From NCBI GenBank assembly GCA_015680905.1, contig CM027381.1, forward strand, positions 88,933,501 to 88,997,500: a DNA stretch of 64,000 nucleotides, given 5' to 3'. The position numbers and the translations under genes are program-made. The DNA is from Coptis chinensis. Lineage: Eukaryota; Streptophyta; Magnoliopsida; Ranunculales; Ranunculaceae. The notes under the pieces were generated by a model. It saw only the letters and a program-made list of their open reading frames with translations, was not told the origin of the DNA and did no database searches. Shown piece after piece: positions 9,256-42,841 of the stretch (position 1 is its first letter; the number at the start of each line of letters is the position of its first letter).

Positions 9256-9376
9256 GAGCATCATCAACGCATTTCCATTTTGCGTTGTGACACATCATCG
9301 GTTTTGACAGTTCAAAATTTCTAAAAGGAAGGGAAGAACTAGCGATGTGTGGGTAAATATGAGTAAAAAAAATTGG

Positions 9377-9434
9377 ACGGGACAAGTTGTCCCGTGCGAA
9401 TCTAATTTTTTTTAAAACGGGTAAAGTTGTCCCG
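9377..9434. repeat. Left subterminal palindromes of element 1
   Basis: ACGGGACAAGTTGTCCCGT at 9377-9395 is a perfect 19-nt palindrome around a central G. A related ACGGGTAAAGTTGTCCCG follows at 9417-9434. The same motif occurs twice near the right end, which suggests transposase or host-protein binding sites (inference). Confidence 0.75.
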
Positions 9435-9583
9435 CCCCCTATTGACCCATTTTATTTAAAACGCGCAGACAAGGTTCCAGTAACATTTGCCCCGCAAGAA
9501 CTCAGCAAGATAACTCAAAATCCAAACTTTCAATCACCTAATAAAAATTCGATTTTCAACCAAATTTGTTTTTGTTTTTTTGC

Positions 9584-11823
9584 AATGGATCAACGTTGTC
9601 GAGCTGGACGTAAGAAGACCGGAAAATGATTTCAATTTTCTACGGAGATTGAGTATTGTTGATCATCCGACGCTGGCTTCCGATCCACACGAGCATGTTT
9701 CGTGTTTATATAACACTGACGGAGTAAGTATGAGTTTATGAACGTTATTCAATTTATTTTGATTGAAAATCGTGTTTAGAATTTAACATATAATAACTGT
9801 TTGATTAAATGCCTCAACGTGTAGAAAATGAGTTCGACGAGATGGAGATGCGCAATGCCGAGTATTAAAGACTTCTGGAGTCATCTAGTGGAAAGAAGGG
9901 AGGAAATAGAGCACATAAGAGCCGAATTTTGGGAACACCTTTTGGTCTATTGATATCATGTACGAGCATTTGGATTGATAGTCCACTAATATTTGCAATG
10001 GTGGAACGATGGTGGCACACCACGCACACTTTTCACCTTCCATGTGGTGAGATTGGTATCACACCACTTGACTTTACAATGCTAACGGGTTTAAGTGTGG
10101 GCGAGAAGAAACCAGTTTTGTTTGATTCAAGTATCGAAGATGATTTTGAAAGGTTAAAGACTCTACTGCCTTCGTTGTTTGATTTTGAAGGTAGACTTGT
10201 TCCAGGGAATATGGATGGCAGATACATTTTGAACCTACACATCAGAGAAAAATTCATGCACTGATTGGATATTGAATATTGTTTAGAACATGAAGTTGAC
10301 GCCCTATATTTGGACCCAAACTCTACAGAGGAGGATGAGTTTATCGATTTTTTTGTTATATTTTTTTGTGCCAAGTTGGTTTTACAACAGGAAAATCTGG
10401 GGTTCGGGATGGTTGGTTAACGTCTTTGGTAGACCTTGATAGCTTGAAAGATTTTGACTGGGGAGGTGCTTTCATGGCACATTTATATACAGGGCTTGAT
10501 TTGTTTGTACAAATAAATCAAATGGGGAAGCAATGCAACGAAATTACTTGGATACTACAGGTAATTCAATAGGATTTAACTTTTAAGATATAAGCTTTTA
10601 TTTTGTTAGTTAAATATTATATAATTTAAATTAATTAGATACACTTTCATTTGATTATTTCAGTACTGGTGGTATGAGTATTTGGCTTGCTTAAACCCTA
10701 TACTGAGAGAGGATTGGGATAAGGACTTATGGCCTCGCCCACAGGGATGGACTGCAGACGGTCATGCTAGACTAAGGGATGAGGTCCATAATGATCTTCA
10801 AGCTGTTAGAATCCAAATAAAGACAAAAAATATGAGATCTATTGTTTGGAGTCTGTGGCAAGGTTCTCAATTTGAGAATATGCATATATGTCAGCATAAT
10901 ACTCTAATGTCGTTAAAAAGATTCATATTGCAAGCCCCTGATATACGTGCTTGGTTCCTTGGAGATATGATAGAGTGACTTTGCAAACCATTGGATATAC
11001 ATATATTCCTGCTCCCCCATCCACAGATATGCGTGCCATGGATGTTTCAGAGAATTTGATTGAACGGTATCGCGTTAAGAGTGCGTGGCCGTGTTTTACA
11101 GATTATGTTGATGTGAACTCTAATCTTGATTATGAGACTTATTGGCGGAAAGTTTCTAGGGGAAACCTATCTGCAGATCCACTGTATAGAGGTGCAAACA
11201 TGGTTGTCGCAACTAGTCAGAGTTTTAGGCAAGACGTCCAATTCCCATAACCTGCAAGTTCCACAAGAACATCTGGAGTATATCATGGTTATACACCCCC
11301 ACCTAGTGATCCATATGACCCATGGTCATACCACGTTGTTAGTTCTCAGGGAATGGAGACCACATTTCACTTGGAGCGTTCGATGTTTAATGAGGTATAT
11401 TTATATTTCATTATGTTAATTTAAACATAATATGTATATTTAACTTAGATACAATATTGACACAATGCAGGAAACAGTACATGCTCGATTATCAAATGAA
11501 ATGCAAATCAACCAGGGGGCTTCGAGCTAGTTTAATTGAGCACACTCAACAATATTATGGCTATTTAGACGAAGAACAAACGCAAAGATCAAACGCTGAG
11601 CGTAGGATGGCTGAGATGACAAACGAATTGGAAGCCTTGGTAATTTTATTATATGTTTTATATTTTCATTTTTTTTTATATATATCCAATTTTAAATTTT
11701 AATTGCATTATGTTGATGTTTCAGAGAATTGCTACTGATATCATGCAGCAAAATAGTGCTCCTAATAAGAGAGGGCGAAAACGGAGAGGGAGTGGCCAGA
11801 GCAGTCAGGGCAGTGCTCCATAG
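9584..11823 (+). pseudogene. Plant mobile domain (PMD) protein gene, decayed, in element 1
   Basis: Fragments in order match a PMD (aminotransferase-like/PP7-long-form-like) protein. They are an N-terminal segment (9606-9722), the PMD core with VERWWHTTHTFHLPCGEIG (9998-10051) and ITPLDFTMLTGLSVG, a middle segment with WGGAFMAHLY (10459-10488), an exon with YWWYEYLACLNPIL from about 10664, and a C-terminal coiled coil with a Ser/Gln-rich tail ending at the 11823 stop. Introns with GT..AG ends are visible, for example 10561-10663, 11395-11468 and 11641-11724. The frame is broken by shifts near 9608, 9930, 10355 and 10965, by a stop at 10262-10264, and by further breaks in the last coding part. 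Order and spacing parallel the PMD gene at 38849-41075. Some PMD proteins work with PP7-like phosphatases in transcription and transposon silencing; this copy is very likely non-functional. Confidence 0.85.
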
Positions 11824-12183
11824 TGCTATATTTTGTAATAATTTAGTGATGTCATTGTTGTTGTTGTTGGTTGTTGTTGTTTTTTAGAATTTGAACAGGT
11901 TTTTGAAAATCTTAACAGGTTTAGGTATATGAATTATGTTAATTAAACAAATGAGGCTATGCCAAATTTTTTTTATGCATTAAATTAATTATTACATTAT
12001 GTTAATTTAAATTCAAGACATACCATTAATTATTACTTAGAATCTATACATGTTTTTTATTATGTAGACAAAGAAATTCTCATGTGAACAATCAAGCCCA
12101 TGTAAACGTGACTAATAATCCCATGGGCCTCCAAGCCAAAACTATATTGCATAATAAAGGAAAAATACACTAAAACAAAGGGA

Positions 12184-12308
12184 TCAATTTATATCCGTTG
12201 GCATTATTCCCAAGGGAGATCAATTTATATCCGTTGGCATTTATTCCCAACGGATATATTTCTATCCGTTGAAATTTATTTATAACGGATATATTTCTAT
12301 CTGTTGGG
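12184..12308. repeat. Array of TATCCGTTGG / CAACGGATA motifs
   Basis: Direct copies of the TATCCGTTGG type and inverted CAACGGATA-type copies alternate within about 125 bp just upstream of the zinc-knuckle gene. They may form hairpins or regulatory sites of the element. Confidence 0.7.
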
Positions 12309-12414
12309 TCTTTGCATATATATTCAAAGTCATTTTCATTCCTCACTTCAGCTTCTCATTTTCATTCTCTAATCTTTCCCAACTTGAATTTTTATCTCAA
12401 CTTCAACTATCAAT

Positions 12415-12768
12415 ATGGGCGAATCAAATATTGTCCATATTTCTACACCTGAGATTTGTCAGTGGTGTAAGAAAGTTGGTCATTACGCTACTTCATGTCC
12501 ATACATTAACATCAAATGCCCAAAACATGAATGCAACGGCATGATGATAGTGGTCATAGCTAGCAATGATGATGGAACATTGGAAGACAAACTTCTAAAG
12601 TGTGATGTTAATGATTGTCCCTCAAATATCAACATCTATCATTCAAAAAAGGTTGACATATGTGTATGTCATTTTTGCAAGAAAGCAGTAGATTTCTGCC
12701 CTAGGTGTGGCTTGTGCGATCAATGCAATCCTTCAATGTGTGATGGAGAAACAAGTTGTACCTCTTAG
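12415..12768 (+). CDS. Small cysteine-rich zinc-knuckle protein inside element 1
   Basis: Intact 117-codon frame opening at the ATG at 12415. Residues about 16-29 form a CCHC zinc knuckle (CQWCKKVGHYATSC, spacing C-x2-C-x4-H-x4-C). Further paired cysteines follow (CPKHEC, CDVNDC, CVCHFC, CPRCGLCDQC), so at least one more zinc-binding module is likely. CCHC knuckles bind single-stranded nucleic acid. I do not recognise a named family. The gene lies 3' of the PMD pseudogene in the same orientation and inside the inverted repeats, so it belongs to the transposon. It is the only reading frame of the element without a visible lesion. A role as an accessory nucleic-acid-binding protein is inference. 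It could also be a captured host exon. Confidence 0.7.
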   Translation: MGESNIVHISTPEICQWCKKVGHYATSCPYINIKCPKHECNGMMIVVIASNDDGTLEDKLLKCDVNDCPSNINIYHSKKVDICVCHFCKKAVDFCPRCGLCDQCNPSMCDGETSCTS

Positions 12769-13112
12769 AATTTAAGTGTAGGATATGTAATATTTGTATT
12801 TTGTTTAATTCCCTAGTGTATTGTCTTTAATTGTTTTGCATGTGTTTTTAATTCCGTAGAATTTTATAAAATGTTTTGTGTTTTTATTTCAAATTAAGTT
12901 GTAGTGTTTTTCATTTCTAGTTGAGTTGATTTGTTTTTAATTTCAACTTATAAATAAACACATTTTATTAAGAAAATATACTTTCATTAAAACAAAATAC
13001 AATTTTATTTAAAGAAAAGCATACATGTAAACAATAAAAACATATTACAACATAAAATTTAAATAAATTAGTACGCTAAAACATAATCTAATACCACTCA
13101 AGTACACATTCA

Positions 13113-13276
13113 AGCCCAACGGTAAAAAGCCCAACGGTACAATTTTTGCAAATCCTCTCAAATCGTTCAGGCCCAACAGTACAAAAACCCAACGATACAA
13201 TTTTTACAAATATTCTAAAATCGTTCAGGCCCAACAGTACAAAAAAAACCCATTTGTACTAAAGCCCAACGGTACA
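13113..13276. repeat. Subterminal CCCAACGGTACAA repeats of element 1
   Basis: About six copies of a CCCAAC(G/A)GTACAA-type motif are spaced through 160 bp, some with an intervening AAATCGTTCAGG. Repeated motifs near a transposon end often bind transposase. Confidence 0.7.
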
Positions 13277-13324
13277 AAATTGAACCACTTGAATTTTTTA
13301 TTAAAAAAAACAAAAAAATGTTGG

Positions 13325-13373
13325 ACGGCTAAAGTAGTCCCGTCCCACTCTTCGACGGGTCAAGTTGTCCCAT
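13325..13373. repeat. Right subterminal palindromes of element 1
   Basis: ACGGCTAAAGTAGTCCCGT (13325-13343) and ACGGGTCAAGTTGTCCCAT (13355-13373) are imperfect copies of the palindrome at 9377-9395, so both ends carry two copies. Confidence 0.72.
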
Positions 13374-13532
13374 GCACACCATTTCTATTTTCTTCACCAA
13401 TTTGGCTCTAGTTTTGACAATTCTTAAAATCAAAACAATAATTTGGCAACGCATTGGTGACGAAAATTGCTATAGAAATTGTCAACTGTCACATTGAAAA
13501 TGAAATATCACAACGCGTTGATGATGCTCTAA

Positions 13533-14831
13533 GAGTATATTTAATCAGTATGTATAGAACTATACATATTAATATAATTTCGTGTGTAATACGCACAAAT
13601 CTAAAATAAAATATATAAATATTTATATATAATAAATTCTGTTAAGCCATTTTATAAGATCATCATGATAGTAAGGAACCTAGCTTGAACTGATAAAAGA
13701 TTGATAGTAATGCAATAAATCAAAAGATTATAGAATAAGTGTATGTGATTAGCATTTTGGAACTATATATAGATATATATAATGTAGGCCTTGAAAAAAG
13801 CAGCAGTCATTATACACTACACCAATTTGAATGTTTAACTATGTATTTAAATGTTCTACTTATTTATGTGATCAAGATAAAATGAGATAATAGTGGTTTA
13901 AAAGGAGGGATCGGAAGACAGGCAAAGACGTGATTATAACGCATCAGATAAGCGTCAATCAGTGTAGCAATCATGCTTGTTGTGGGTCAAATGAAAAGGT
14001 TGCGAATTGTGAGAGCATCATCATCTGATCTAGCCAGCCTTTACCACCCAAGCCTTTTTAAGCTTCTCTTAAGCCATTCTATAAATCAAGCTCTTCTTTT
14101 AACATAATTCCATTATTATGAAATAGAGCCCCTTTTTTCATGTTTGGGTGTCTTATATCAGTACCAAAGGAAAACGACAGAAAGTAGTGACATCATCATA
14201 TTAAGAGCTCTTGGATGCTTTGCAGAATTTTCACTTTATTTTTATTTTCATATTTTTATTCTGTTTTGCCACCCCCTTATCCTTGTTCTGTGCTTCTGCC
14301 ATATTATAATCATCATTTCTGTACTGATAAAACAAAATTTGTACACAATACCCAGATAGTGAAAACTTCAATCTTTCTTTGCTTAAAACTCATGATATAG
14401 TCGTTAAGAGAAACCCATCATCTGTTTTATGTCTAGTTGTTTTCCTAGTTTGAAAGTTTGAATGCATGGGTGGGCTAGATATAAGTTTGTGAGACCTCAG
14501 AGTTACTCAGACAAGCAAAACCAGGTGTAGACAGTGACTATGAGAATCATCTATCATCATCATCATCATCTCTTCACGAGATTTCTTTCTGCCTTCCATC
14601 AAATGATGCCTTTCTGTGTCTGAAAAACCTGTGCATCAGTGCATGTGTTGCCTTGTGTCACTTTGTATCTAGTGCGAAGATTCTATTTCCATTTCTCTTA
14701 GTTATTTCAGTGTTCTTGTTTCATTGTTGAGAGTTGAGACTTTGGAAGAAGAAAAAGAAATCCAAAAAACAAAAACATCAGACAAGGGTTTTGTTTCGTT
14801 TTGTTTATAGAAGTTGCCTACTTTAGTAGTT
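13533..14831 (+). promoter_or_regulatory. Upstream region of the IDD gene
   Basis: No coding sequence recognised. It contains an (ATC)n run near 14552-14570 and purine-rich leader-like DNA (AGAAGAAAAAGAAA near 14746) just before the IDD start. A promoter and long 5' leader probably lie here, but no TATA box could be fixed. Confidence 0.4.
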
Positions 14832-17800
14832 ATGTTGTCTGCAATCATGTCTAATTCAACTTCTTTATCTGAAGAAGCTAGTGTATCTTCTGTTACTGGG
14901 GTTCAAGATTTTAGTAGTTTAAATATGATGTTCTCACCACCCCTTTGTCCTCAGCAACAACAGAAGCAGAACAAAAGGAAGAGAAATCTTCCTGGAAACC
15001 CAGGTATAATTTTTTGCTATACTAACTTATTTGGTTATGTTTTTGGACTTGTATCACTTTCTCACTTGTTTTCTTTCTTTTAATGATTTTAGACCCAGAG
15101 GCTGAAGTCATTGCTTTATCACCCAGATCACTCTTGGCAACAAATAGATTTGTGTGTGAGATCTGCAACAAGGGATTTCAAAGAGACCAAAACTTACAAC
15201 TGCATAGAAGAGGGCATAACCTTCCTTGGAAGCTAAAGCAGAGAAGTGGTACAGAGATAAGGAAGAGAGTCTATGTATGTCCAGAATCTACATGTGTTCA
15301 CCATAACCCTTCAAGAGCACTTGGTGATCTTACTGGTATCAAGAAACACTTTTGTAGAAAACATGGAGAGAAGAAATGGAAATGTGAGAAATGTTCAAAA
15401 AAATATGCAGTTCATTCAGATTGGAAAGCCCACTCAAAAACCTGTGGAACAAGGGAGTATAGATGTGACTGTGGAACCCTTTTCTCAAGGTAATTTGTTC
15501 TCTTATCTTCCCCTTTTTATGTTTTGTTAAAATGTTCTTTATGGTTCAGTCTGTCTATTGTTTCAATAATTCCTACTTTATGTTTCATTCATCTTCTTCA
15601 CATTTTAGGGAACCTCATATCTGATTTTGAGGTTTTGATGTTTTAATGAAAGTTTGCAAGTGGGAATAAGTCTAGACTGATTAGACTCTAGTGTCCTTAA
15701 CAAGGAGGTGGTCTTTGTTTTGTAAATCAGTTGCTTTTTGTTTTGGGGTTGTTCTTGCATAAAAGTGGTAAAAGCTTGCATGGAATAATCTGAAAACTTA
15801 TTAAATGCCATTGACAGGTTGCATGCAGTACACCTAATTAAAGACAGGTGTCTGTTACTGGTGTGATTGGTTAGAGTAACTGAAGAAAGAAAATTTGTCT
15901 GGACCTTCCATGGCAAATTCTGAAGAATGATAAGACCAATGAAAACAAAATTCCAAACAGTTTGAACTTTCATTAGTACACAGTGACTTGATTTTTCATG
16001 TGACTCAGTCATAGGTTTTGTGAGTCTAGTGCCTTGGAAAATTCCATTGACATATATGCTCCTGTTTATAAAATCAAATGACAGTATCAACTATCATGTA
16101 TGTTTAGGATCGGACTAATTATCAAGCACACTGATTAACTAAAAAAAAAATTATCAAACACACTAATGCTGTAATGCAGTCATAGTTTGGGATTTCGGAA
16201 TTCCGGTAAATCCAAAAACCGAAATCCAGTAAATTTCAACCCTATAGAATTTGGAATTTCGATTATTTCGACACTATATTTAAAATTTCGATTTTTTGAA
16301 AACCGAAATTCCAAACGGAATTCCGTTTCGTTCGGAATCACGAACTATGAATGCAGTGGAAAAAATCTGAACTTATATTTTGATAGAGACTAGGAATATC
16401 TGAAATCTAACATTTGCATTGAGCTTATTATGCTTGGAGAGTTGGAGTTATTGGCAACTACCAACCTTTTTCTTATACTTTTTGGTAAATGTTAGCTTTG
16501 AATATCTGTTTCATACTGCATGCCATATTACCACATTCATGCAAGTCAGCAAGTGTCTCTTTTATTTTTCCTGTTTTTATTTACTGCTTTTCCATATATT
16601 GGTAATTGGTACTGAGCTATGGAAGTATGGAGAGAGAGTGTCTACAATCTCATGAGACATGATGATCAGTCTTGGCCACTAAAAAGCAAAGATTTTGAAT
16701 AAACTTTTATTTTAAGGTCTCAATATCTATTGGGTTTTTGTGACTATGATTATAAAACCTGTTATTATTTATCACTGTGCATGTTACTACTATTTACTTG
16801 CAGAATCCTCTGAACCTGTAATCTATAAGACTAGAACTAATAACAAAAGTGGTAGAACTGCAAACATCTGAAATGAATAGTTGCCTTCATTTCATCACTA
16901 ACATGCTTGTGGGTCATAATGACATACTATTCTTCATGCACAGACAGATTATGACCCTACATAGTTCATCTTCAAAAAAATTCAAAGACCATTATATAAT
17001 AAGCTAAGACCAATGCAAGTTTTTGCATGCCAGATTTCACTCATTGGTATTGCAGACTAACACCCCCTCCCCCCCTCTCTCTCTTTCTCAATAAGCAACT
17101 TTGTCCCTGAAAGACATGGCATTATACTTTTATTTCATCAAGCTTTATGCCCACCAAAGGTCCACCCATTTTTCATGCATAGATTTTAGGCCTCTACTTT
17201 TCATCGCATGCCCTTGATATTTCCATTAGCAATTTTTTAGGCCACATATCAAGCATGACAAATTAATATCATTAAATTTCTCCTTGCATAACAAATATAC
17301 AAATTAGAAACCTTATAGCAAAAGTATAATTTTCTGAGCTGTCTCTGATTTCTGAGTAGCAAATGCAAAATAACCTTTTTTCATGCATAGATAGTTAGAT
17401 ACACAAAACTCTGCTGTTCTCTCTAGTCTTTGTTTTATGTTCTCATTTAGTTTTCCATTTCTCTACTTTTATACCAAATGTGCAGGAAGGACAGCTTCAT
17501 TACCCACAGAGCTTTCTGTGATGCTTTAGCTGAAGAAACTGCAAAAATTTCCACCTACCCATCAACAACAACAAACCCAATAGAGCGTCCTGTCTATATC
17601 CACCCACAAAACCCACCACCCCCTCTCTTTCCATTTCCACACCCACCAACTGAAGTTTCTATTTCTTCATGGGACCCACTTCATAACCACGACCCCACTT
17701 CCAACCCAATCAAGCTTGAATTTCATGATTTTCATCAACAACAAACGTCTGACCCCGCCTCAAATCAAATTCCAAACCACCAACAAGTGTCAAATATCAA

Positions 17801-18305
17801 CTCTTTTTTCCAAGAACAACTTCAACAAAAAAATTTTGTCACTACACCCACTTTTCTCCAACCACACCCATACACCACTACTGCTTCCAACACCGGCACT
17901 GTAACTAATTTATCAGCAACTGCACTCCTGCAAAAGGCTGCAAATGTTGGTGTTGCTCCCATTTCTAGCCCTACACAAGCTCAATCAGTGGGTCACATGA
18001 CATCTTTTGTGTCCCAATTTCAAATGGCTGATTCTGGCTCAGGGAATCATATGGTTGGTGCAAGTATATCACCAGGGTGTCTAGCACCACATTCAGGACA
18101 TTTTGCCACGTGGAAAAAAAGAGACCGTTTGACTAGAGATTTTCTTGGTTTGACTGGAGAGTGTGGTGGTGATGCTAATGTTGGAGACCTCTTGTCCTTC
18201 ACTAGGACTGTTGATTTTCCATCCTATGATCGCGACCGTTCATTTTTGAGACCTCCTGATTTTGGTTTTGCTGACTCAGCTACAGACACTTGGGGTGATT
18301 GTTGA
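14832..18305 (+). CDS. INDETERMINATE-domain (IDD) C2H2 zinc-finger transcription factor
   Basis: Three exons, 14832-15003, 15093-15489 and 17486-18305, join in frame to 462 aa; a start at the ATG at 14847 would give 457 aa and is about equally likely. After an N-terminal basic motif (KRKRNLPGNP, a likely nuclear signal) comes the ID domain: C2H2 finger 1 (about 77-99), the long finger 2 (118-148), and two C2HC-type fingers (153-175 and 180-201). The Ser/Pro/Gln-rich C-terminal half ends with the TRDFLGL motif near residue 406, conserved in many IDD proteins and linked to co-repressor contact. IDD factors control gibberellin response, root patterning and carbon metabolism, often with SCR/SHR or DELLA proteins; which member this is cannot be settled here. 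Both introns interrupt codons at usual IDD positions. Intron 2 (about 2 kb) contains a MITE. Confidence 0.95.
16181..16349. mobile_element. hAT-type MITE in IDD intron 2
   Basis: A 169-bp element with inverted ends (CATAGTTTGGGATTTCGGAA at left; the right end reads inward as CATAGTTCGTGATTCCGAA). It is flanked by AATGCAGT at 16173-16180 and 16350-16357, a perfect 8-bp duplication as made by hAT transposases. The interior is a string of GAAATTCC/GGAATTTC motifs and can fold into a near-complete hairpin. Confidence 0.85.
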
Positions 18306-19418: not shown

Positions 19419-19426
19419 ATTGTAGC

Positions 19427-20593: not shown

Positions 20594-20618
20594 TATGTGA
20601 GTACAGTAATGCATATTA

Positions 20619-32963: not shown

Positions 32964-33671
32964 AAGAGTCCTATCACTGTCTCGGCTTGTTTAATTTATA
33001 TTGGGTCAGTTTGTAGAATTTTCTCTTGAATCTGAAAATATCTGTTTTATTTATTTAATAAGACATTTTTCTGGTCGAAATGTTGTTTCTCAACTCAATT
33101 ATTCTTCCACTTCAAGTTATTTCCACTTTGTATTCATATATTAGCAAGGTAGGAGCATAATAAGCCTCCATCATTGTTTTGATGTAGAGGCAAATTCCAT
33201 TGGTTGATATTTGCAAAACTTTGAGGCAAACTCCATGGCATCATAACTCCAGTAGAAAATATAAGTGTAGGTGGAACTTTATTTTACTGTAAAAAATCCA
33301 TTACGAATGAACAATTAATTTCAGAAAGAATGGGAAATTGCCTAGTTCAAGTGCCACCTCTTTGGCTCTTTCAACCTAGAAGCCGCTACTCAGTTTTTAC
33401 ATTTGACTGACAGACCAATATACTGCTTTTCTGCTTCCATATCTCCTAATATTCAAATGGTCGCCGATATTTTCTTTTTTCCAAATGGTATTGGATGTGA
33501 TTAATGAATCGGTGATTTTAATTTGCAATATCAAAAGGCTATATATCTACTTTCCTACTGAGAATGTTATAAACTGTAATAATCACTGTTCTAAAAATCG
33601 GTCTAATAAAGCCGATCGTTTTTAAAATCGTGAACCCAAAGCTAGGGCTATATAGGCGGCCTCTAGGCGTC

Positions 33672-33675
<4 letters not shown>

Positions 33676-33715
<40 letters not shown>
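33676..33715. repeat. 40-base poly(T) tract
   Basis: Uninterrupted T run. It could be the reverse-strand poly(A) tail of a retroposed sequence, but no retroposon body could be defined. Confidence 0.85.
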
Positions 33716-33719
<4 letters not shown>

Positions 33720-34161
33720 GATTAAATGTCGAAAAATAAAGGCCATAGGCAAGATTTAAATGAGTTTAAAATACCCCTAATGTAAATTATGTCACTATAA
33801 CAAAAATATGTTTTTATATGAAGTCAATTTCTTCAACTATTACACATTTTGTAATAAGTATTTTTTTGTTTGTGTTTATTTTTGAATTATGGTAAATGAT
33901 TTTCTTTATTTTTTGTAATATGTGTATATTACTATATATATTAGGAAAAAAACTCGGCTAGAAAAATAAAGCATCAAAGTGTGCTATATGGGCTGCTAAA
34001 TGCCATACAGCACCCCCAACACACAAAATATTCATTCCAATAGGGCTGCTAGGTGGGTTCTAAATTTGGTGCTAACTCGGCTAGAAAACTATGTCTACCA
34101 AGGAAAACAAATTTGAGTGGGCTTAATTTTTCTTAACCAATGTGCCGAACTTTGCAGGTTG

Positions 34162-34185
34162 TATATATATATATATATATATATA
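34162..34185. repeat. (TA)n microsatellite
   Basis: Twelve TA units directly upstream of the OTP86-like gene; it may include or mimic the core promoter. Confidence 0.85.
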
Positions 34186-34303
34186 AGTATATAACCACAT
34201 TTTTTGCGTTGTCTACGAATAACTGATTAATATGCGCTTATTATTATTATTATTACACTCTTATCGCGTGCACACACTTGAGCTTCCATGCACCAAGAGA
34301 AAA

Positions 34304-37150
34304 ATGAGCATGGCTCTGCAACACTACTACTACTACCACTGCACCCAATCCTTACTTCACCCCAAAGTCATAAACCCTCCTAAAACCCCATCACTTCAAC
34401 TCCCTCAAATTTCATCTTTCAAAGAGCTTTGTAAGCAAGGAAAACTTAAAGAAGCTTTTTCCACATTTCAAACTTTTTTCACTAATGAAACCGCAACTCA
34501 ATTTCCTTCTAATGAAGTTTACTCATCCATTTTAGAGCTTTGTGCTAGTAAGAAAGCATTAGCTGAAGGTAAACAAGTTCATGCTCATTTACTTACATGT
34601 AATTTAAGTTTAGATTCTGTGTTTATGAATACTAAACTTGTGTTTATGTATGGGAAGTGTGGGGCATTATTAGATTCTAAGAGTTTGTTTGATGAAATGT
34701 CTGAAAGGACTATTTTTACATGGAATGCTATGATCGGTGCTTTTGTTTCTAATGGGGAGCCTTTGGGGGCAGTTGAGTTGTTTAAGGAAATGCGGGTTTT
34801 GGATGTTCTTGTTGATGCTGTCACTTTTCCTTCTGTATTGAAAGCTTGTGGTGTGTTGAAAGATCTTGATTATGGGAGGGAGGTTCATGGTTTAGCCGTT
34901 AAAAGTGGGTTTGTGTGGAATGTGTTTGTTGTTAATTCACTTGTGGCTATGTATGCTAAGTGTGATGATTTTAATGGAGCTAGAGTGTTATTTGATAGAA
35001 TGACTGAAAAGGGAGATGTTGTGTCGTGGAATTCGATGATATCAGCTTATTCATCCAATGGGAAATCTCTTGAGGCCTTGAGGCTTTTCCGAGAAATGCA
35101 GTTGGATGGTGTTTCCATGAACTCCTACACTGTAGTCGGTGTTCTTCAAGCATGTCAGGAACCATGTTTCTTAAGATTGGGTATGGAGATGCATGCTGCA
35201 CTTTTGAAGTCTTGTCGTGAAGTTGAAGTATATGAAACTAATGCATTGGTTGTAATGTACTCAAGATGTGGTAACGTGAGTGACGCATTAAGAATGTTTC
35301 GTGAAATGAATGAGAAAGATAATGTGTCTTGGAATTCAATGCTTTCAGGTTTTGTGCAAAACGAGCTCTACTCAGAAGCTGTTGGCTTTTTCCGTGAAGT
35401 GCTTGACATGGGTTGTAAAATTGACCTGGTTTCAGTAATAAGTATTGTTTCTGCATCCGGTAGATTAGGGAATCTGTTAAACGGAATGGAAGCTCATGCT
35501 TGTGCAGTAAAACTTGGTTTTGATTCTGATTTACAGGTGGGAAACACACTATTAGATATGTATGCTAAATGTCATCGTGTACATTATATGGTCCAGGTTT
35601 TCGATAAGATGCCCGAAAAAGACATGATATCCTGGACAACAATTATAGCTGGCAATGCTCAAAATGGTGGTTACTTAAAGGCATTGGAATTGTTTCATGA
35701 AGTACAAGAGGAAGGGATGAAGGTGGATGCTATGATGATTGGGAGCACTCTCCTTGCATCTAGCGGCTTGAGGTGTGTTTCCCATATCAAGCAAATCCAT
35801 AGTTACCTAATGAGACAATGTCTGTTTGATCTTGTGCTAGAAAATACGCTTGTAGATACGTATGGAGAATGTGGAGAGATAGACTATGCATCTCAAATGT
35901 TTGATAGGATAGAGAATAAAGATGTTGTAACATGGACAAGCATGATATCTTGTTACATTCATAATGGGTTCGCAAACGAGGCCCTTGAACTTTTCTATGG
36001 CATGGGTAAGGCAGGTATTGAACCTGATTTAATAGCACTGGTGAGTGTACTCTCAGCCTGTGCAAGCTTATCTGCATTAAAGAAAGGAAAAGAGATCCAT
36101 GCATATCTCATAAGGAAGTGCTTCAGTTTGGAAGGGACTGTAGTGAGTTCTCTCGTTGATATGTATGCACATTGCGGACGCGTAGATAACTCGTACAGAA
36201 TATTCAGTCTTGTTCAGTATAAAGACCTGGTATTGTGGACTACCATGATCAATGCAAGTGGAATGCATGGTCAGGGCAAGGAAGCCATCACTTTCTTTAA
36301 CAAGATGATGGAGGCAGGTCTCACACCTGATCATATAACCTATTTAGCGCTTCTCCATGCATGTAGTCATTCAGGATTGATAGAGGAAGGAAAAAGGTAT
36401 CTTGAAATTATGAAAACTGACTACAATTTAGAACCATGGCCAGAGCACTATGCCTGTCTGGTTGATCTTCTTGGACGTGCTAAATGCCTAAATGAAGCAT
36501 ATGATTTTGTAAATAAAATGCCAATTGAACCGACTGCTGCAATTTGGTGTGCCCTCCTTGGAGCGTGCCGCGTGCACTCAGATAATTCTCTGGGAGAAAA
36601 TGTTGCTAGGAAGCTCCTCGAGTTGGAACCACAAAATCCAGGAAATTATGTTCTTGCATCAAATGTGTTTGCTTCTAATGGGAAGTGGAAAGATGTGGAT
36701 GATGTGAGAATGAGAATGAAGACAAGGGGACTGAGGAAAAATCCTGCATGTAGTTGGATTGAGGTTGCAAATAAGGTGCATACTTTCATGGTAAGGGACA
36801 AGTCGCATCCACAATCAGAAGAGGTCTACTCAACATTGACTCAGATAACTGAGAGGTTAGAGAGAGAAGGTTATGTGGCTGAGACAAAGTTTGTTTTGCA
36901 CAATGTACAGGAAGAAGAAAAGAAAAAGATGCTATATGGGCATAGCGAGAGACTAGCCATTGCATTCGGTCTGATTGGGACTTCCTCAGGTACACCAATT
37001 CAAATCACAAAGAACCTTCGGGTATGCGGTGACTGCCATGTTTTCACCAAGCTTGTCTCGAAATTCTTTGAGCGAAAGATTATAGTGAGAGATGCCAACA
37101 GGTTCCATCATTTTGAGGGTGGTGTCTGTTCCTGTGGGGATTTTTGGTGA
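34304..37150 (+). CDS. OTP86: PPR-DYW RNA editing factor, OTP86-like
   Basis: Intronless gene. The frame opens at 34232 (972 codons), but the ATG at 34304 (MSMALQHYYYYHC, 948 codons) is a more plausible start with a basic, Ser/Thr-rich plastid-type leader. A long PLS repeat array covers about residues 80-700 (for example VFMYGKCGALLDSKSLFDEM). E/E+ motifs and a DYW domain follow, with the deaminase signature GHSERLAIAFGLI, CGDCHVF and the ending CGDFW. Compared from memory with Arabidopsis At3g63370 (OTP86), long blocks agree, such as SGRLGNLLNGMEAHA, DLQVGNTLLDMYAKC and LVDLLGRAKCLNEA. OTP86 is required for editing of the plastid rps14 transcript. Orthology is inferred and not tested by phylogeny. 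No lesion is visible; the last residues are DFW instead of DYW. Confidence 0.9.
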   Translation: MSMALQHYYYYHCTQSLLHPKVINPPKTPSLQLPQISSFKELCKQGKLKEAFSTFQTFFTNETATQFPSNEVYSSILELCASKKALAEGKQVHAHLLTCNLSLDSVFMNTKLVFMYGKCGALLDSKSLFDEMSERTIFTWNAMIGAFVSNGEPLGAVELFKEMRVLDVLVDAVTFPSVLKACGVLKDLDYGREVHGLAVKSGFVWNVFVVNSLVAMYAKCDDFNGARVLFDRMTEKGDVVSWNSMISAYSSNGKSLEALRLFREMQLDGVSMNSYTVVGVLQACQEPCFLRLGMEMHAALLKSCREVEVYETNALVVMYSRCGNVSDALRMFREMNEKDNVSWNSMLSGFVQNELYSEAVGFFREVLDMGCKIDLVSVISIVSASGRLGNLLNGMEAHACAVKLGFDSDLQVGNTLLDMYAKCHRVHYMVQVFDKMPEKDMISWTTIIAGNAQNGGYLKALELFHEVQEEGMKVDAMMIGSTLLASSGLRCVSHIKQIHSYLMRQCLFDLVLENTLVDTYGECGEIDYASQMFDRIENKDVVTWTSMISCYIHNGFANEALELFYGMGKAGIEPDLIALVSVLSACASLSALKKGKEIHAYLIRKCFSLEGTVVSSLVDMYAHCGRVDNSYRIFSLVQYKDLVLWTTMINASGMHGQGKEAITFFNKMMEAGLTPDHITYLALLHACSHSGLIEEGKRYLEIMKTDYNLEPWPEHYACLVDLLGRAKCLNEAYDFVNKMPIEPTAAIWCALLGACRVHSDNSLGENVARKLLELEPQNPGNYVLASNVFASNGKWKDVDDVRMRMKTRGLRKNPACSWIEVANKVHTFMVRDKSHPQSEEVYSTLTQITERLEREGYVAETKFVLHNVQEEEKKKMLYGHSERLAIAFGLIGTSSGTPIQITKNLRVCGDCHVFTKLVSKFFERKIIVRDANRFHHFEGGVCSCGDFW

Positions 37151-38144
37151 TGAATGGCAGCTGCATCCAAATAGTGGAAACTGGGTGTTGTTTTGGAAAT
37201 GGTACATGTATACAGCTCAGTCAAGACTTACTGTTAAATCTTAATCTTGGTTGCTTGAACCCAGAATGCTACAGGTCAAGTTGGCACCGGCTCTGGCTAT
37301 ATGACAGAGGGTTCTGCAAGATGTTATGTTTGACCTGCCTGGGATTTAGCCAATGCTCTTTCGGATAAGATTTGAAGATTGAGGCTGGAAAGGAAGAAGT
37401 CAAAAGGGTGCCTGTGTGGCCGTCTTCCTTTTGCTTGGCGGAGATTAGAGCGAAAAACTAAGAGGAGAGCAGCTCGCCTGAGGCGTTGGGATCAAGTTCC
37501 TAGGTCTCCCAACCCTGGGCACTTGAAAATGCATTTTGAGGATTTGGGCAAGGACCAACAATCAACAATCAGCATTAGGAATCGGAGCTGTAAAAAGAAT
37601 TCATATTTAGTGGCGATCAATATAACTCATGAATAACAAGTGACTCCAGATTGCTTTTTTGTTGTTTTGGTGAAACCTTATTGACTGATGAGTATGGAGA
37701 GCAAAATCCTGCCAATGGATGCATCATTTTTCTTGATCATTGTGATGTTTTCCCTTGTACATTTGTTGTACCATTATAAAATTATAATATAGCTGTTTGC
37801 GTTTCTATGATGTTTCTTCTCTTTTATAATATAGTGAAATTTATTCAATCACTGAATGCTATCTGCCTTATATATGATATCTTAGTATTCAAGATTCCAA
37901 AAAACAAAAGTTTTTTGTGAAACTTCCCTTAAATAAACTATCGATACATTTGCAAGTATGCATGTTTCCTCATGGTCCCTCAGCAGTACATCTCACTACA
38001 GAAAATTCTAAGCCGGTTGTTAAAGGACTGCTCTAGCAATGGACTTGCCAGCATTTCACGATATAAGATTACTCGGTATTGATTAGTGCAATGTCCTCTC
38101 CCTTGCGTTTCAAAGGATCAGACTTCTCTGACTGCACATAGCAA
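37151..38144. other. OTP86 3' flank up to the transposon block
   Basis: No gene recognised; the Arg/Lys-rich frame at 37379-37636 has no known domain. Non-genic similarity to the retrotransposon LTR begins at about 38145. Confidence 0.5.
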
Positions 38145-38670
38145 AATAAAGCAAAACTATAAAGTGGAGTGTGAAGTGTCTCAAAAATAATGGAGAATGA
38201 CAAATTAGTAAAAAGCAAAAGTAGGGGTATATAATCTAAAAGTGAAGGAGTGAGAAGGCAGCCATTGCATTTAGGGTCCAAACCATTTGGTTTGTAGGAG
38301 TAGAGAATGCACTTAGACTTGATCTAGTGTCATGTAGGATTTATTTTCTTGTCTAGTTTTTCAATTAAGTCATTTACTTTCTTGTTTTTCAATTCAATCT
38401 GGTTCTTGCTTTTTACATTTCAATCAATCTTATTTCTTTTTGTTATCTCTTCAATCAATCATTTCCTTATATTTGCTTTCAAGTTTATGTCTTGTCAATG
38501 TTCAAAACTACTTTAGTTTTCAATATTCTTCATTACTTAGAACCAAAACTTGTCCTAAATAAGATCTTAGAGCATTTCTAGGTGGTGGTAGCATACTCTT
38601 CATATTTGAAGAATGCTACTACAGAAACTGGTCGCAAATTTCGACCGCAAAATTCATTGTAGACCCCACC

Positions 38671-38786
38671 TGCGCGACATTATTAGTATCGGTGCTTGCA
38701 GCATTACCATTGTCGACGACAAATGATATCGGGCGCCCGATCTACTAATGTCGCGTGCTATGCTTAATAAAATGTCACGCGACAGT
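38671..38786. repeat. Left subterminal TGTCGCG motifs of element 2
   Basis: GCGCGACATTATTAGTA, TACTAATGTCGCGTGC (38743-38758) and AATGTCACGCGACA (38771-38784) are repeats and inverted repeats of one motif. Partner copies lie at 42461-42475 and 42551-42575. Confidence 0.75.
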
Positions 38787-38848
38787 CGGACTTTTGTCAT
38801 TTCACAACTTTTTTTTCAACTTACTCTAGTTCTAGTTCTAGTAAAAAA

Positions 38849-41075
38849 ATGAATTCCGACGACGAATACGTCTATAATAACCAAACACGATGGAGTGGTG
38901 ACGGTGAGAAAGAAGAAAATAGTGGTAATAGTGCATACGTTTGAAACAATCCCATTGGTGATCTAGATGATGAACCAAACACTGAGGCTGACGATCCATT
39001 GCTGTTTCAGTATCAGCAAGTCGACTTTGAATTTCCTACTGATACTATTGATTTCAGCCATCTTAGGCCAGTGTCATTGAGGTTTCATGATATGCATGTT
39101 TCAAGAGTTGTTCTTGAACAACAGGTATGTATTTTAATTTCATATATTAGTCGTAGTAGTAGTTAATTTTAGTTGTTATAAATACGTACATTTTTATTTT
39201 TATTTTTATTTTTTTAATTTTAGTTTCATTTTGCGTACATCAGAAATGTGTTATGTATCGGGTTCGGTGCACTCCACATGCGGTTAAGACGTGGTGGGAT
39301 GATATTAAGAAAGTTGGTGCACTTGACCATGTTAGAGATGCAATTTTAGCGACTCCCTTTAGCCATCTAGTTGACATACCTTATAGTAAGACTGACATTC
39401 AGGGAGTTATTGCTGGTTTAGTTGAGAGATGGTGGGATAGTACACATACTTTTCACTTCTCTCAGGGAGAGTTGGGCTTCACTCCACTAGATTTTACCAT
39501 GATTTTTGGTTTGAGTATAGGATTAGGTAATCCATTGAGATGTAGCACTAAATTCCAGAGTTGTGCCCAAATGATGAGTTTTTTCCCTTGTCTGACCGAG
39601 GAGTCATATGACAATGCTGGTGTTAGGATTTCTGGTATCAAGGCTGCAGACATTACACCGTTGCATACTGATTTAGGATTGCAGTTTTTGATAAATTATT
39701 TGTCACTTGATTCTGATGATGGTCAAGCACATGCTGATGAGTATGTAAGAGCTTTACGTATGTATTTGATGGCCTTCTTTTTTTTCCTTCCGCCATTCCA
39801 CGATTAACTTGGGGTATCTAGCCAACTTTGAGCACTTGCATGAGTTAGGCGGTATTGATTTTGGTGGAGCCATATACTGTCATTTGTTGCGTTGTAAAGA
39901 TTGGGCTTCTCGGCAGACTGGTGTTGTTAGTAGTCCCCAAATGGGAGGGTTTGTCATTCTCTTAGAGGTATGGTTTTATGAGTATTTTCGTGTTGCAAAT
40001 CCTATCCTCACAGAGTATACCGATGAGAGGCCTAGGCTCAGGGCTTGGCACGGACCTCGTAGAGCTCGTCTGACCAGTGAGATCAGTCATAACATAACTT
40101 CTGTCCGAACCCAGATCGAGCTTAGCACACAGGCTTCTATTGTTTGGAGGCCTTGGAGGACATCTCGTGCACATCGGGCGCCGAATGATCAGAGATACGC
40201 ATTGATGATTTCTCATAGGAGGATGGTATTCACTTGTGGGAGTGATATGGAGTGGTATTTAGGGGATAGATGTTACAGACAGCTCACACCATGCTTTGGT
40301 ATCTCCCCTGATCCGCCTACCCATGTATCAGAGGCTAAGGATATGACCTTAGAGCAAGTCATCGAGAGAAACGTGTATTGGACTTGGCTACAGGCTTCTG
40401 ACCTAGTTACATTGCAAACTTATGAGCAGTACTATCGTTATTGGTTTAGGGTATCTATTGGTCATTTGCTCCTAGCTGTGGGTCGTACAGGCAACATTCA
40501 TACGGTTAGCAATTTGGGTGTCAGATGTGAATTCCAGATTGGCCACCGGCCACAAAATGACGCTTCAAAGATGGACCATACACACATTTGTTCCAGCCGG
40601 ATCCCCTCACCGAGTGGCCTTGGGTTTTCAGGTTTGAGTGATCCGAGTGGCGGGACGATTTACCGACCCATTTCTTCTATTGATGACACTTTCGCCGCAT
40701 GCTAGAGAGCCTGAACAACTTGGACATCTACCTCTGGTAATTATTTTTTTTTGGTTTTGGTTTATTTTATTTTTGTTTATTATAAAAATGTCATAAATTA
40801 TTAATGAATAATTATTTCAGGATGAGCTACGCATGAGATATGAGACATGCATTCGTGTAAATGATGGCTTGCGCTCCTCGATATTCGCCTATAGTGCTGA
40901 GAGAGAGAGACTTCTTTCCCAGGCTCATGTGGATTATGACGATTTGCAACGCCAGGTTGATGAGTTACAGGCTCAAATTGATCACACAAGGGTTAGTTCA
41001 TCACAGCATGGCCAGTCGGAGAGTTCAGCACAAGGACAGTCGAGGAGGAGTTCATGGCAGAGGAGGCGTATGTAG
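38849..41075 (+). pseudogene. Plant mobile domain (PMD) protein gene in element 2, mildly broken
   Basis: Exon 1 (ATG at 38849) carries an acidic N-terminal region, ends in VSRVVLEQQ and splices at about 39124 (GTATGT) to an acceptor before 39244. Exon 2 holds the PMD core: HAVKTWWDDIKK, GLVERWWDSTHTFHFSQGEL and FTPLDFTMIFGLSIGL. Then come GGIDFGGAIYCHLL and VWFYEYFRVANPILTEY, and a last exon (about 40821 on) with a coiled coil (LRSSIFAYSAERERLLSQAH) and a Gln/Ser/Arg-rich tail. Two lesions are seen: a TGA at 38942-38944, and a one-base frame change in the T run at about 39777-39787 that separates two long frames (39253-39807 and 39809-40705). Exact introns in the 3' part are uncertain. The domain order equals that of the PMD gene in element 1. 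Family knowledge ties PMD proteins to transposons and to silencing; activity of this copy is doubtful. Confidence 0.87.
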
Positions 41076-41307
41076 GAAGTGATGACTTGATGATTTATAA
41101 TATTATTTGGTGTATGATGATTATTATTATGTTGTGTGATTTAGAATTGTTCATTTGATCATTTTGATAAGTTCTAATTTACTTCCTTTGACTTAGCAAA
41201 TGAATTGCAATTTTTATTAATAGAACGACAACTAATACATGATTGCAAATACATAAAATAAAAATAAAAAAAATAAAATACAACTATTACATACTACTAG
41301 AGTTACT

Positions 41308-42376
41308 CTAGTTATCAAGCCAGTCATCATTTTCTTCATCATTGGCTTCTTCGTTGTTGGAAGCTTCATTTGTACTACTTGATCCAGCCCTCTTTTCATA
41401 TTTAGCTACAATTGCATCTTGTTTTAGCTCTAAAACCCTTCGCAAACGAGGATTGACTTTGTCAAGTGACATTGCCAACAACCTAGTCTCATTTTCCTCC
41501 TCTCTAACACGGAGTTTTTCTTGCTTCAAAAAGAACTTTTTTTGTGTTTTCTCTTGCTTCAATTTCATCATAGTTTGAAATTGCTTATTTAGAATCTCTT
41601 CTTTATTTCTTCGACTTACTTTAAAAGCTTCAAGAAAATCATCCATATTTTTAGCAGTGGATGCAACATTACCCTCGACAGTAAAAGCAACTTTCTTGTT
41701 CTTCTCAATACTTTGCTCTGCTTCCTACCGACAGACCTCTCCAAAAAACCTTCGGTACTGTTAGGATCGTATTCCGAGTACAGTGAAGGTGAAGGGGTAG
41801 AGTAAGGCGTTGAAAGGGTTGGGGTTGAGGGTGAAGAATCAAAACCTTCAACATCTCCGGATCTTGCTTTCTTCTTTGGTCTTGGAGCAAGTTTACGTTA
41901 CATGAAATCGAAGTTCTTTGCCACTTTGGCGTATTTTGGACTAGATTATAACAATCTTGCCATATCAATGGTTTCCCAGTAGTAGCCGCATAAGTTGTTG
42001 CCGTGTCTGAAAGCTACGTTTATTAAAAAAAAAAATCAATATCAAGTAGTATATAAAATGAAGTATAAACGAATCTTACAATGTCTTCACATCCCCACCC
42101 GCTTGGAGGTTGTTCTTCAAGCTTTCTTAGTATAGCATGATATTTGTTGAAGAACGGTAAAATAATCGACCAACGTTGTGAGACTCCTTTCCACTTACGG
42201 TTGCGGTCAAAACCTTGAATTTGATTCATCTTAGCCATAATTCGTTCCCAATAAACTTTTCCCGATTGATCATTACCTATTATAGGATCTTCTCCAATCT
42301 CAATCCACACTTTAGTAAGAGCAATATTTTCTTCATTTGTCAAACTTGGACCCCTTCCTTGTTTTGGTTGTGACAT
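41308..42376 (-). pseudogene. Myb/NAM-like PIF/Harbinger ORF1 protein, frameshifted
   Basis: On the minus strand the frame starts at 42376 (MSQPKQGRGPSLTNEENIAL) and shows the trihelix/Myb-like DNA-binding region of NAM-associated, PIF ORF1-type proteins: NEENIALTKVWIEIGEDPII, GKVYWERIMAKMNQ, RKWKGVSQRWSIILPFFNKY. An intron (donor GTAAGA at about 42081, acceptor near 42015) leads to TTGKPLIWQDCYNLVQNTPKW, the typical second block. A Ser/Thr/Pro linker and a C-terminal coiled coil follow (MDDFLEAFKVSRRNKEEI to DDWLDN-stop at 41308). Frame changes near 41925 and 41725 and an in-frame stop make it a pseudogene. In PIF/Harbinger elements this protein works with the DDE transposase, which is absent here. 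It lies tail-to-tail with the PMD gene. Confidence 0.85.
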
Positions 42377-42841
42377 TGAGAGTGTTGTGTGTGAAAATGA
42401 AGAAGGAGATGAGTGTAGATATATGGATGTAGAAATCCGGCCGTTTTTTTCCCATTGGAGCACGCGACATTAGGAGTGGTGCGCAACAGTGCAACTGGCG
42501 CGCGTGGTGCTGGTCAAAGTCAAAAAAGTTGTGGGGCAACATTTGCAATGACACGTGACATTACTAATGTCGCGCCGCATCCGCATCCAAATTGCCAAAT
42601 TTGCGAACAAGAATGCGAACAAACAGGTGATGCAACCACGAATGCGACCACCTAGAGATGGTATTTTGGGAAATTCCGACGCATTCCTTCAAATTTGAAG
42701 GATGCGACCATGAATACGTCCACCTAGAGATGCTCTTACCTTCCTTTCTTCAACTCCCAACCATTCAAACTCTAAACAATCTAGGATGGACCTCACTTCT
42801 TACAATATTTTGAAGATACAAACCTCTATCACAGCTTCAAA

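What the first reader, a model, noticed from the sequence alone, without database searches (positions are those of the whole stretch)
9256..42735. Recurrent PMD plus PIF/Harbinger association: a candidate new transposon lineage
Two elements with distinct termini, about 25 kb apart, share PMD cargo with the same layout: acidic N-terminus, PMD core, coiled coil, Gln/Ser-rich tail. They also share similar length (4.27 and 4.17 kb) and two-gene structure with different second genes. One capture followed by divergence, or repeated capture, would both be notable. PMD may protect the element from host silencing or act in transposition (speculation).
Basis: inference. Interest (0 to 1): 0.88.

Follow-up and report, generated by a model that had tools for sequence, protein, structure and literature searches.

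The report
Plant transposons sharing genes between partners
Two jumping genes in a plant genome turn out to belong to large families in which four genes, including a domain known from plant gene silencing, are split in pairs between partner elements with the same ends, which suggests that the partners may depend on one another to move.

Summary
E1 (9256-13529) and E2 (38570-42735) are TWA-flanked PIF/Harbinger-type transposons; E2 has an exact empty site at 53065-53067. In the window's 936-Mb genome their PMD genes have about 95 and at least 127 relatives, mostly in a fixed two-gene layout. Four genes recur: plant mobile domain (PMD), ORF1-like, DDE transposase (TPase), and a Cys-rich zinc-knuckle-like gene (ZnK), dealt out in pairs among elements with the same ends. 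E1 lineage: PMD+ZnK (73 of 95 PMD places) and TPase+ORF1-like (85 of 97 TPase places). E2 lineage: PMD+ORF1 (75 of 127), PMD+TPase (8 of 127), ZnK+TPase (71 of 97); no listed TPase within 6 kb of a listed ORF1. In one element TPase replaces the ORF1 coding region almost exactly. PMD shows constraint, ZnK none. E1 and E2 PMDs lie on one side of a 100% split from eight other PMDs of this genome; no confirmed MAIN/MAIL gene was sampled. An open-access library search found no report of PMD in PIF/Harbinger elements. What PMD does is not shown.

The parts
9256..13529 (.). Element E1 (4274 bp), PMD+ZnK element of the E1 lineage; TSD TAA at 9253-9255 and 13530-13532
   Evidence: 15/15 terminal match, equal TAA; genome has 339 exact TWA+terminus places, 0 for the reversed control
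9585..11823 (+). PMD gene of E1, several exons, broken by frame changes
   Evidence: PF10536 E 2.5e-14 on one exon; about 95 related places in the genome; start and stop codon checked, introns read by eye
12415..12768 (+). ZnK gene of E1: open 117-aa Cys-rich zinc-knuckle-like ORF
   Evidence: open frame; about 81 close relatives, 73 of 95 PMD1 places have one downstream on the same strand; no Pfam hit
9373..9437 (.). E1 left subterminal repeats (CGGGACAAGTTGTCCCG type)
   Evidence: the repeat finder D2; TGTCVCG sites at element positions 132 and 172 here and 131 and 171 in partner L078
13321..13375 (.). E1 right subterminal repeats of the same D2 family (no exact TGTCVCG site there)
   Evidence: the repeat finder D2
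38570..42735 (.). Element E2 (4166 bp), PMD+ORF1 element of the E2 lineage; TSD TTA at 38567-38569 and 42736-42738
   Evidence: 15/16 terminal match, equal TTA, empty site; 1283 exact TWA+terminus places in the genome, 0 for the reversed control
38849..41075 (+). PMD gene of E2 (three exons by eye; one internal stop and one frame change)
   Evidence: PF10536 composite E 6e-30; at least 127 related places in the genome; start and stop codon checked
41308..42376 (-). ORF1-like gene of E2 (NAM-associated C-terminal domain in the composite reading; an intron and a frame change near 41900 by eye)
   Evidence: PF14303 E 3.3e-9 on the composite, none on single ORFs; at least 150 related places, 75 of 127 PMD2 places have one convergent downstream
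38673..38790 (.). E2 left subterminal GCGACATTA/TGTCGCG repeats
42459..42575 (.). E2 right subterminal repeats of the same motif
52658..53168 (+). Related copy of the host repeat that holds E2, without E2: the empty site, TTA at 53065-53067
   Evidence: alignment of joined flanks, 511 bp, 93% identity; repeats D5, D8, D12; TTA checked

Best explanation
E1 and E2 are copies of two lineages of PIF/Harbinger-type cut-and-paste transposons whose coding capacity is divided. Each lineage has four genes (DDE transposase, ORF1-like protein, PMD protein, ZnK protein), but an element typically carries two; elements with different pairs share terminal and subterminal sequences. Shown: the gene pairs and their regular orientation, the shared ends, the 3-bp TWA target duplications, the empty site, and an exchange of ORF1 for TPase inside otherwise homologous elements. 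Inferred: TPase and ORF1 made by some elements act in trans on all elements with matching ends, and gene pairs are reshuffled by recombination or gap repair between partners. PMD is kept as a useful element gene, not as passing cargo (supported by fewer amino-acid changes than neutral). Most likely, and not shown, PMD acts in trans for the whole lineage, either against host silencing (by kinship with the MAIN/MAIL silencing proteins) or in the transposition complex.
For: Co-occurrence within 6 kb of listed places: pmd1-znk 73 of 95; tp1-orf1_1 85 of 97; pmd2-orf1 75 of 127; pmd2-tp 8 of 127; tp-znk2 71 of 97; tp-orf1 0 of 97; pmd1 or znk with tp1 or orf1_1 0. Random placement gives means of 0.15-0.30, maximum 3. 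Seen from the PMD or TPase all pairs of a class have one orientation; seen from ORF1 and from ZnK1 there is one exception each. Partners share ends: first 60 bp 73-92% and last 60 bp 67-92%, against 40% and 51% for E1-E2 and 55% and 53% for L078-L071. TSDs: equal in 8 of 8 E2-type elements and concordant in 23 of 23 E2-terminus pairs on C1 and 22 of 22 E1-terminus pairs picked from the list; equal in 5 of 6 E1-type loci fetched. Partners seen in sequence: L069 and L070 PMD+TPase, L071 ZnK+TPase, L078 TPase plus ORF1-like gene with E1 ends. TPase of L069: PF04827 3e-80, PF13359 1.2e-5. E2 against L069: homology at 1-2746 and 3817-4166 only; the missing stretch is almost exactly the ORF1 coding region. 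Median dN/dS: PMD2 0.49-0.53 (30 sequences), PMD1 0.36 (7 sequences), controls 0.86 and 0.93. PMD2 amino-acid:silent changes 121:72 when shared by copies, 188:52 when singleton, p 4e-4; the frame-shifted reading shows no such fall (135:55 and 149:76).
Against: That all four genes are needed has not been shown; no expression or mobility data. ZnK1 dN/dS 1.36 (7 sequences) gives no sign of constraint; ORF1 shared versus singleton is not significant, p 0.48. Stops make up 12 of 205 shared PMD2 changes (5.9%, expectation 4.2%), so some shared changes are in dead copies. Lists are capped, so 'never together' rests on the best about 80-150 places per gene; 44 of 127 PMD2, 74 of 150 ORF1 and 18 of 97 TPase places have no listed partner. 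One ZnK2 place lies near a TPase1/ORF1_1 pair, and one distant ZnK place each near a PMD2/ORF1 pair and a PMD1 place. The L078 ORF1-like gene hits PF14303 only below cut-off (E 0.0057) and shows no significant pairwise match to the E2 ORF1. Only one genome; many listed copies hold stops.
Confidence: 0.75

Rival explanations
1. Passive capture (Pack-TYPE view): PMD and ZnK are host or foreign gene pieces caught in non-autonomous elements that ride on TPase and ORF1 made elsewhere; their abundance only reflects hitch-hiking.
For: None of the 95 listed E1-type PMD places has a listed TPase or ORF1 within 6 kb; ZnK1 shows no constraint; Pack-PIF elements are described in plants (PMC8903248, passages seen).
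Against: The same two extra genes occur in two lineages with different ends; PMD shows constraint in both; PMD appears with ORF1, TPase or ZnK; no parental host gene was found, the nearest PMDs being other repeated genes.
Confidence: 0.15
2. PMD is a silencing suppressor: element PMD competes with or poisons the host MAIN/MAIL1-PP7L pathway so that the whole lineage stays expressed.
For: MAIN and MAIL1 are PMD proteins needed for TE silencing, and Ikeda et al. speculate that captured PMD could serve MULEs against silencing (PMC5418596, passages seen). A trans-acting good fits its separation from TPase.
Against: No functional test; element PMDs sit far from the other PMDs sampled and no MAIN/MAIL sequence was compared.
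Confidence: 0.4
3. PMD (and ZnK) are parts of the transposition machinery, for example a second DNA- or partner-binding factor at the subterminal repeats.
For: Partners carry subterminal TGTCVCG sites at matching places (E1/L078 left end; E2/L069 both ends); Harbinger movement already needs two proteins (PMC2836001, abstract and passages seen).
Against: Binding not tested; the motif is short, was found by eye, also occurs 6 times elsewhere in the window and is absent in exact form from the E1 right end; in Arabidopsis Ping or Pong proteins (ORF1 and TPase) suffice to move mPing (passages).
Confidence: 0.3
4. Two independent captures of different host PMD genes, with no shared history.
For: The two PMDs are only about 36% identical over the best exon and differ by an intron within the PMD (by eye).
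Confidence: 0.12

Closest known systems
PIF/Harbinger transposons (Ping/Pong/mPing, Harbinger3_DR)
   Same: 3-bp TWA target duplication, short terminal inverted repeats, DDE transposase (PF13359/PF04827), separate ORF1-like gene, MITE-sized relatives with the same ends
   Different: Here listed ORF1 and TPase places never coincide in the E2 lineage, and two further genes (PMD, ZnK) are regular components; published coding elements nearly always carry ORF1 and TPase together (PMC2836001, PMC4482050, passages seen)
PMD-carrying MULEs and Ty3/Gypsy elements (Ikeda et al. 2017, PMC5418596, passages seen)
   Same: A mobile element carries a PMD gene; anti-silencing role proposed
   Different: MULE PMDs are fused to the transposase and Gypsy PMDs belong to LTR elements; here PMD is a separate gene in elements with Harbinger ends
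Pack-TYPE (Pack-PIF) elements (PMC8903248, passages seen)
   Same: Non-autonomous elements with Harbinger ends carrying coding DNA
   Different: No parent gene found; the cargo is the same gene in two lineages, PMD shows constraint, and a gene is exchanged as a whole
VANDAL21 with VANC21 (described in PMC8616336, passage seen)
   Same: A DNA transposon carries an accessory gene that favours its own family in trans
   Different: Other protein; VANC21 has a shown effect, PMD here has none shown

Membership tests
PIF/Harbinger superfamily | 3-bp TWA target site duplication | tested here: met
   1 of 6 fetched E1-type loci has TCA
PIF/Harbinger superfamily | short terminal inverted repeats | tested here: met
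   15/15 and 15/16; 339 and 1283 exact TWA+terminus places, controls 0
PIF/Harbinger superfamily | DDE transposase of the PF13359/PF04827 kind in elements with the same ends | tested here: met
   not found in E1 or E2 themselves; in L069, L070, L071 and, degenerate, L078
PIF/Harbinger superfamily | ORF1 with a Myb/SANT DNA-binding domain | tested here: inconclusive
   E2 composite hits PF14303 (3.3e-9), single ORFs do not; no Myb model listed; that PF14303 is typical of plant Harbinger ORF1 is recalled, and no held paper holds both 'NAM-associated' and 'Harbinger'
PIF/Harbinger superfamily | ORF1 and TPase in one autonomous element | tested here: inconclusive
   E1 lineage: 85 of 97 TPase places have the ORF1-like gene; E2 lineage: 0 of 97 (capped lists)
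Plant mobile domain (PF10536) | match above Pfam cut-off (34.9 bits) | tested here: met
   E1 exon 53.6 bits, E2 composite 105 bits; L014 122 bits; the third-group piece L079 only 18.5 bits, below cut-off
PMD-MULE | PMD fused to a MULE transposase | tested here: not met
   no transposase model hit in the E1 and E2 ORFs scanned; ends and TSD are of Harbinger type
Pack-TYPE element | captured fragment of an identifiable host gene | tested here: inconclusive
   nearest PMDs are repeated ones or the 5-place L079 group; host-gene status of L079 not known

The most novel reading that the evidence does not exclude
A multipartite DNA transposon: four genes, all needed for long-term spread, distributed over partner elements that share ends and complement one another in trans, with the partition reshuffled differently in two lineages (PMD+ZnK / TPase+ORF1 versus PMD+ORF1 / ZnK+TPase / PMD+TPase), much as multipartite viruses split their genomes; PMD proteins are a core component that plants may once have domesticated as MAIN/MAIL silencing factors.
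Probability: 0.35. Interest if true: 0.93.

Novelty: new variant of a known kind. Interest (0 to 1): 0.85.

Why it matters
It would add a further class of carriers to the plant mobile domain, described so far (in what I saw) in Gypsy elements, MULEs and host genes, and gives a direct way to ask what PMD does: its element copies are numerous, show constraint and are linked to a tractable cut-and-paste system. It also offers a natural case of a transposon whose genes are split among partners, which bears on how non-autonomous elements persist, on how transposon-host conflict may have shaped MAIN/MAIL silencing, and on annotation, since such PMD genes may be listed as host genes in other plants.

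Tried and rejected
Relatives in viral contigs: two of 8 scans used; one found no match, the other three pattern matches of which none was a relative. PDB by sequence: one chance hit, E 0.57. Structure of the PMD (L014 with 13 other rows): mean pLDDT 31.5, pTM 0.22, discarded, no fold search made. Common origin of E1 and E2 from their terminal DNA: ends 40% and 51% alike over 60 bp, far below partner pairs (no random control run), so the shared motif TGTCVCG is kept only as a hint. A PF13359 genome search did not complete; the TPase protein search served instead. A whole-PMD census was not possible: 117 of 3773 first-look candidates were scored, and E1 and E2 are not among the places listed. 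The tree is small: 26 sequences (11 E2-type, 6 E1-type, L079, 8 others), 422 columns, fragments joined by model column; its labels 'Gypsylike' and 'genic' are guesses of mine and not results: Pfam scans of the PMD frames of L001, L003, L004, L006 and L007 gave PMD, with weak DUF1985 in two, and three side ORFs gave nothing. One label printed (PMD2 32) was an artefact of re-rooting; the tree as written gives 100. In one search the means for the 5' end and exons A and B include L073, which one search shows to be unrelated there.

L069 and L070 are PMD+TPase elements outside the 127 listed PMD2 places. In one search the last two C1 places (both minus, unpaired) were left out, and the 22 E1-terminus pairs were picked by eye from the first 100 of 339 places. 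One search compares the 8 PMD-partnered with a hand-picked 15 of 71 ZnK-partnered transposases.
Full report
Observation. E1 spans 9256-13529 (4274 bp, TAA on both sides, 15/15 terminal match) and E2 38570-42735 (4166 bp, TTA on both sides, 15/16). A scan of all pairs 2-8 kb apart flanked by equal TTA or TAA returns only these two at 15/16; ten Markov shuffles return none (at 14/15, one hit in one of ten). E2 sits inside a repeat of which a second copy lies at 52658-53168; E2's joined flanks align to it over 511 bp at 93%, with one TTA at the junction. Both elements start with a PMD gene running inward from about 300 bp behind the left end. The second gene of E1 is an open 117-aa Cys-rich ORF on the same strand with no Pfam hit; that of E2 is a convergent gene whose composite reading hits the NAM-associated domain (PF14303, E 3.3e-9), though its single ORFs do not; I recall this domain from plant Harbinger ORF1 proteins. 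No transposase was found in either element.

Copies in the genome. The window's own genome (936 Mb, 116 contigs, unnamed) was searched. The E2-type PMD exon has at least 127 places, the E2 ORF1 exon at least 150, the E1-type PMD exon about 95, the E1 ZnK about 81 close relatives. Exact TWA+terminus strings number 1283 for E2 and 339 for E1, against 0 for the reversed controls. Among 30 fetched E2-type PMD loci, 28 have a TWA-flanked terminus with at most 3 mismatches; the 8 elements for which both ends were found have equal TSDs and lengths of 4142-4459 bp. Of 6 fetched E1-type loci, 5 have both ends and equal TSDs (four TAA, one TCA); the sixth, L073, has lost its 5' part. Terminus pairs on C1 are TSD-concordant in 23 of 23 cases (E2 end) and in 22 of 22 picked pairs (E1 end); 18 of the 23 and 14 of the 22 are short, mostly about 400-570 bp, the size of MITEs.

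Partner elements. Two long E2-terminus pairs on C1 that were missing from the PMD list, and one of 2.7 kb, were fetched. L069 and L070 carry PMD plus a DDE transposase; L071 carries the transposase and a ZnK-like gene, 41% identical over 64 residues to the E1 ZnK. L078, a 3.9-kb pair with E1 ends and TTA on both sides, carries a degenerate transposase and a convergent ORF1-like gene that hits PF14303 only below cut-off. Genome searches with these proteins gave the co-occurrence table. E1 lineage: PMD-ZnK 73 of 95, TPase-ORF1 85 of 97, none mixed. E2 lineage: PMD-ORF1 75 of 127, PMD-TPase 8 of 127, TPase-ZnK 71 of 97, TPase-ORF1 0 of 97. Exceptions between lineages: one ZnK2 place near a TPase1/ORF1_1 pair, and one distant ZnK place each near a PMD2/ORF1 pair and near a PMD1 place. 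Random placement gives means of 0.15-0.30 per comparison and at most 3. Seen from PMD or TPase every class has one orientation; seen from ORF1 and ZnK1 there is one exception each. Exact termini lie near the matching genes: E1 ends near pmd1 11 of 23, znk 10 of 17, tp1 10 of 30, orf1_1 10 of 31, but near pmd2 0 of 35, tp 0 of 34, znk2 0 of 54 and orf1 1 of 42; E2 ends (C1 only) near pmd2 3 of 6, orf1 3 of 8, tp 6 of 8, znk2 5 of 7, and near 0 of 35 E1-lineage places. Lists are capped; 44 of 127 PMD2, 74 of 150 ORF1 and 18 of 97 TPase places have no listed partner.

Exchange of genes. E2 and L069 are homologous over E2 positions 1-2746 and 3817-4166 (82% each) and not between. The E2 ORF1 start codon lies at position 3807 and its stop at 2739-2741, so the exchanged block is the ORF1 coding region to within about ten bases, with the right-end leader kept. 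The 8 PMD-partnered transposases range from 70 to 95% identity to that of L069, overlapping a sample of 15 of the 71 ZnK-partnered ones at 70-89% (figures), which hints at more than one exchange.

Selection. Across 30 E2-type PMD copies median dN/dS is 0.53 (exon B) and 0.49 (exon A); across 7 E1-type copies 0.36; a frame-shifted control gives 0.86 and a non-coding control 0.93. Changes shared by copies are poorer in amino-acid changes than singletons (N:S 121:72 versus 188:52, Fisher p 4e-4), as expected if moving copies were constrained and inserted ones decay freely; the frame-shifted reading shows no such fall. Against this, stops are not rarer among shared changes than expected (12 of 205). 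ORF1 shows the same trend without significance (median 0.73; p 0.48). ZnK1 shows none (1.36, 7 sequences). These are results partly against the view that every gene is needed.

PMD relationships. With 26 sequences and 422 columns, E1-type, E2-type and L079 PMDs are split from eight other PMDs of this genome with 100% ultrafast bootstrap; the E1-type and E2-type groups each have 100%; the order among the three is unresolved (55%). L079, itself below the Pfam cut-off, belongs to a group of five places, and at least 88 further PMD places 33-41% identical to it lie outside the E1 and E2 sets, their elements unknown. No confirmed MAIN/MAIL gene was in the tree, so capture versus donation to the host cannot be decided.

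What is known. Ikeda et al. 2017 (PMC5418596, passages) describe PMD-A in Gypsy elements, PMD-B and C mainly in genes, and two captures of PMD-C by MULEs, and speculate on an anti-silencing use. Nicolau et al. 2020 (PMC7156037, passages) tie MAIN and MAIL1 to PP7L and TE silencing. A 2021 review (PMC8616336, passages) repeats the counter-silencing idea. Two held papers contain both 'plant mobile domain' and 'harbinger'; the passages shown report no such element. A search for split, bipartite, multipartite or segmented transposons as phrases found no paper, and I saw none in the listings of related searches. Harbinger movement needs ORF1 and TPase (PMC2836001, abstract and passages), which published coding elements nearly always carry together (PMC2836001, PMC4482050, passages). 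The library holds open-licence papers only, and Repbase was not searchable.

Mechanism. Shown: target duplications, empty site, shared ends, gene pairs, gene exchange; supported: constraint on PMD. Inferred: TPase and ORF1 act in trans on all elements with matching ends; exchange arises by recombination or gap repair; PMD serves the lineage in trans. Anti-silencing is my first guess for PMD (about 0.4), a part of the transposition complex the second (about 0.3). Subterminal TGTCVCG sites at matching places in partners (E1/L078 left end, E2/L069 both ends) are candidate binding sites.

Verdict. The recurrent PMD-Harbinger association is real and multi-copy, and the gene partition was not expected. 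I rate it a new variant of a known kind; a true multipartite transposon remains possible and testable.

Noticed in passing
G000, at least 88 places, e.g. C4:82155064, C5:5337318, C9:6819888: A further large set of PMD genes, 33-41% identical to L079 and outside the E1 and E2 sets; what carries them is unknown.
   Followed up: partly
L079 (G000:C8:25155300-25156700): Third PMD group with five listed places and an open 281-aa frame; element or host gene not known.
   Followed up: partly
L072 (G000:C7:34004293-34008993): E1-type element with equal TCA instead of TAA/TTA on both sides.
   Followed up: no
E1 positions about 700-760 (window about 9955-10015), compared with L072, L074-L077: Patch of exon A with many small frame-breaking differences between copies, while introns 2 to 4 average 93-99% identity.
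   Followed up: partly
window 12182-12307 and 13109-13245: Two short tandem arrays (about 35 and 58 bp units) inside E1 before and behind the ZnK gene.
   Followed up: no
window 48222-48385: Tandem array of a 57-bp unit, 2.9 copies, 92% matches.
   Followed up: no
window 56404-57184: Tandem duplication of about 390 bp; the two repeat families that make it up are each 100% identical between the two units.
   Followed up: no
window 38170-38569, 42736-43138, 52658-53168, 54239-54891: Repeat family into which E2 inserted, with an inverted copy at about 77-82% identity.
   Followed up: partly
G000, terminus pairs: Short pairs, mostly about 400-570 bp, with the E1 or E2 ends (14 of 22 and 18 of 23): MITE-like, possibly moved by the same transposases.
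   Followed up: no
L070 (G000:C1:2685640-2690230): PMD+TPase element whose transposase is only about 47% identical to that of L069, suggesting a separate exchange or strong decay.
   Followed up: no
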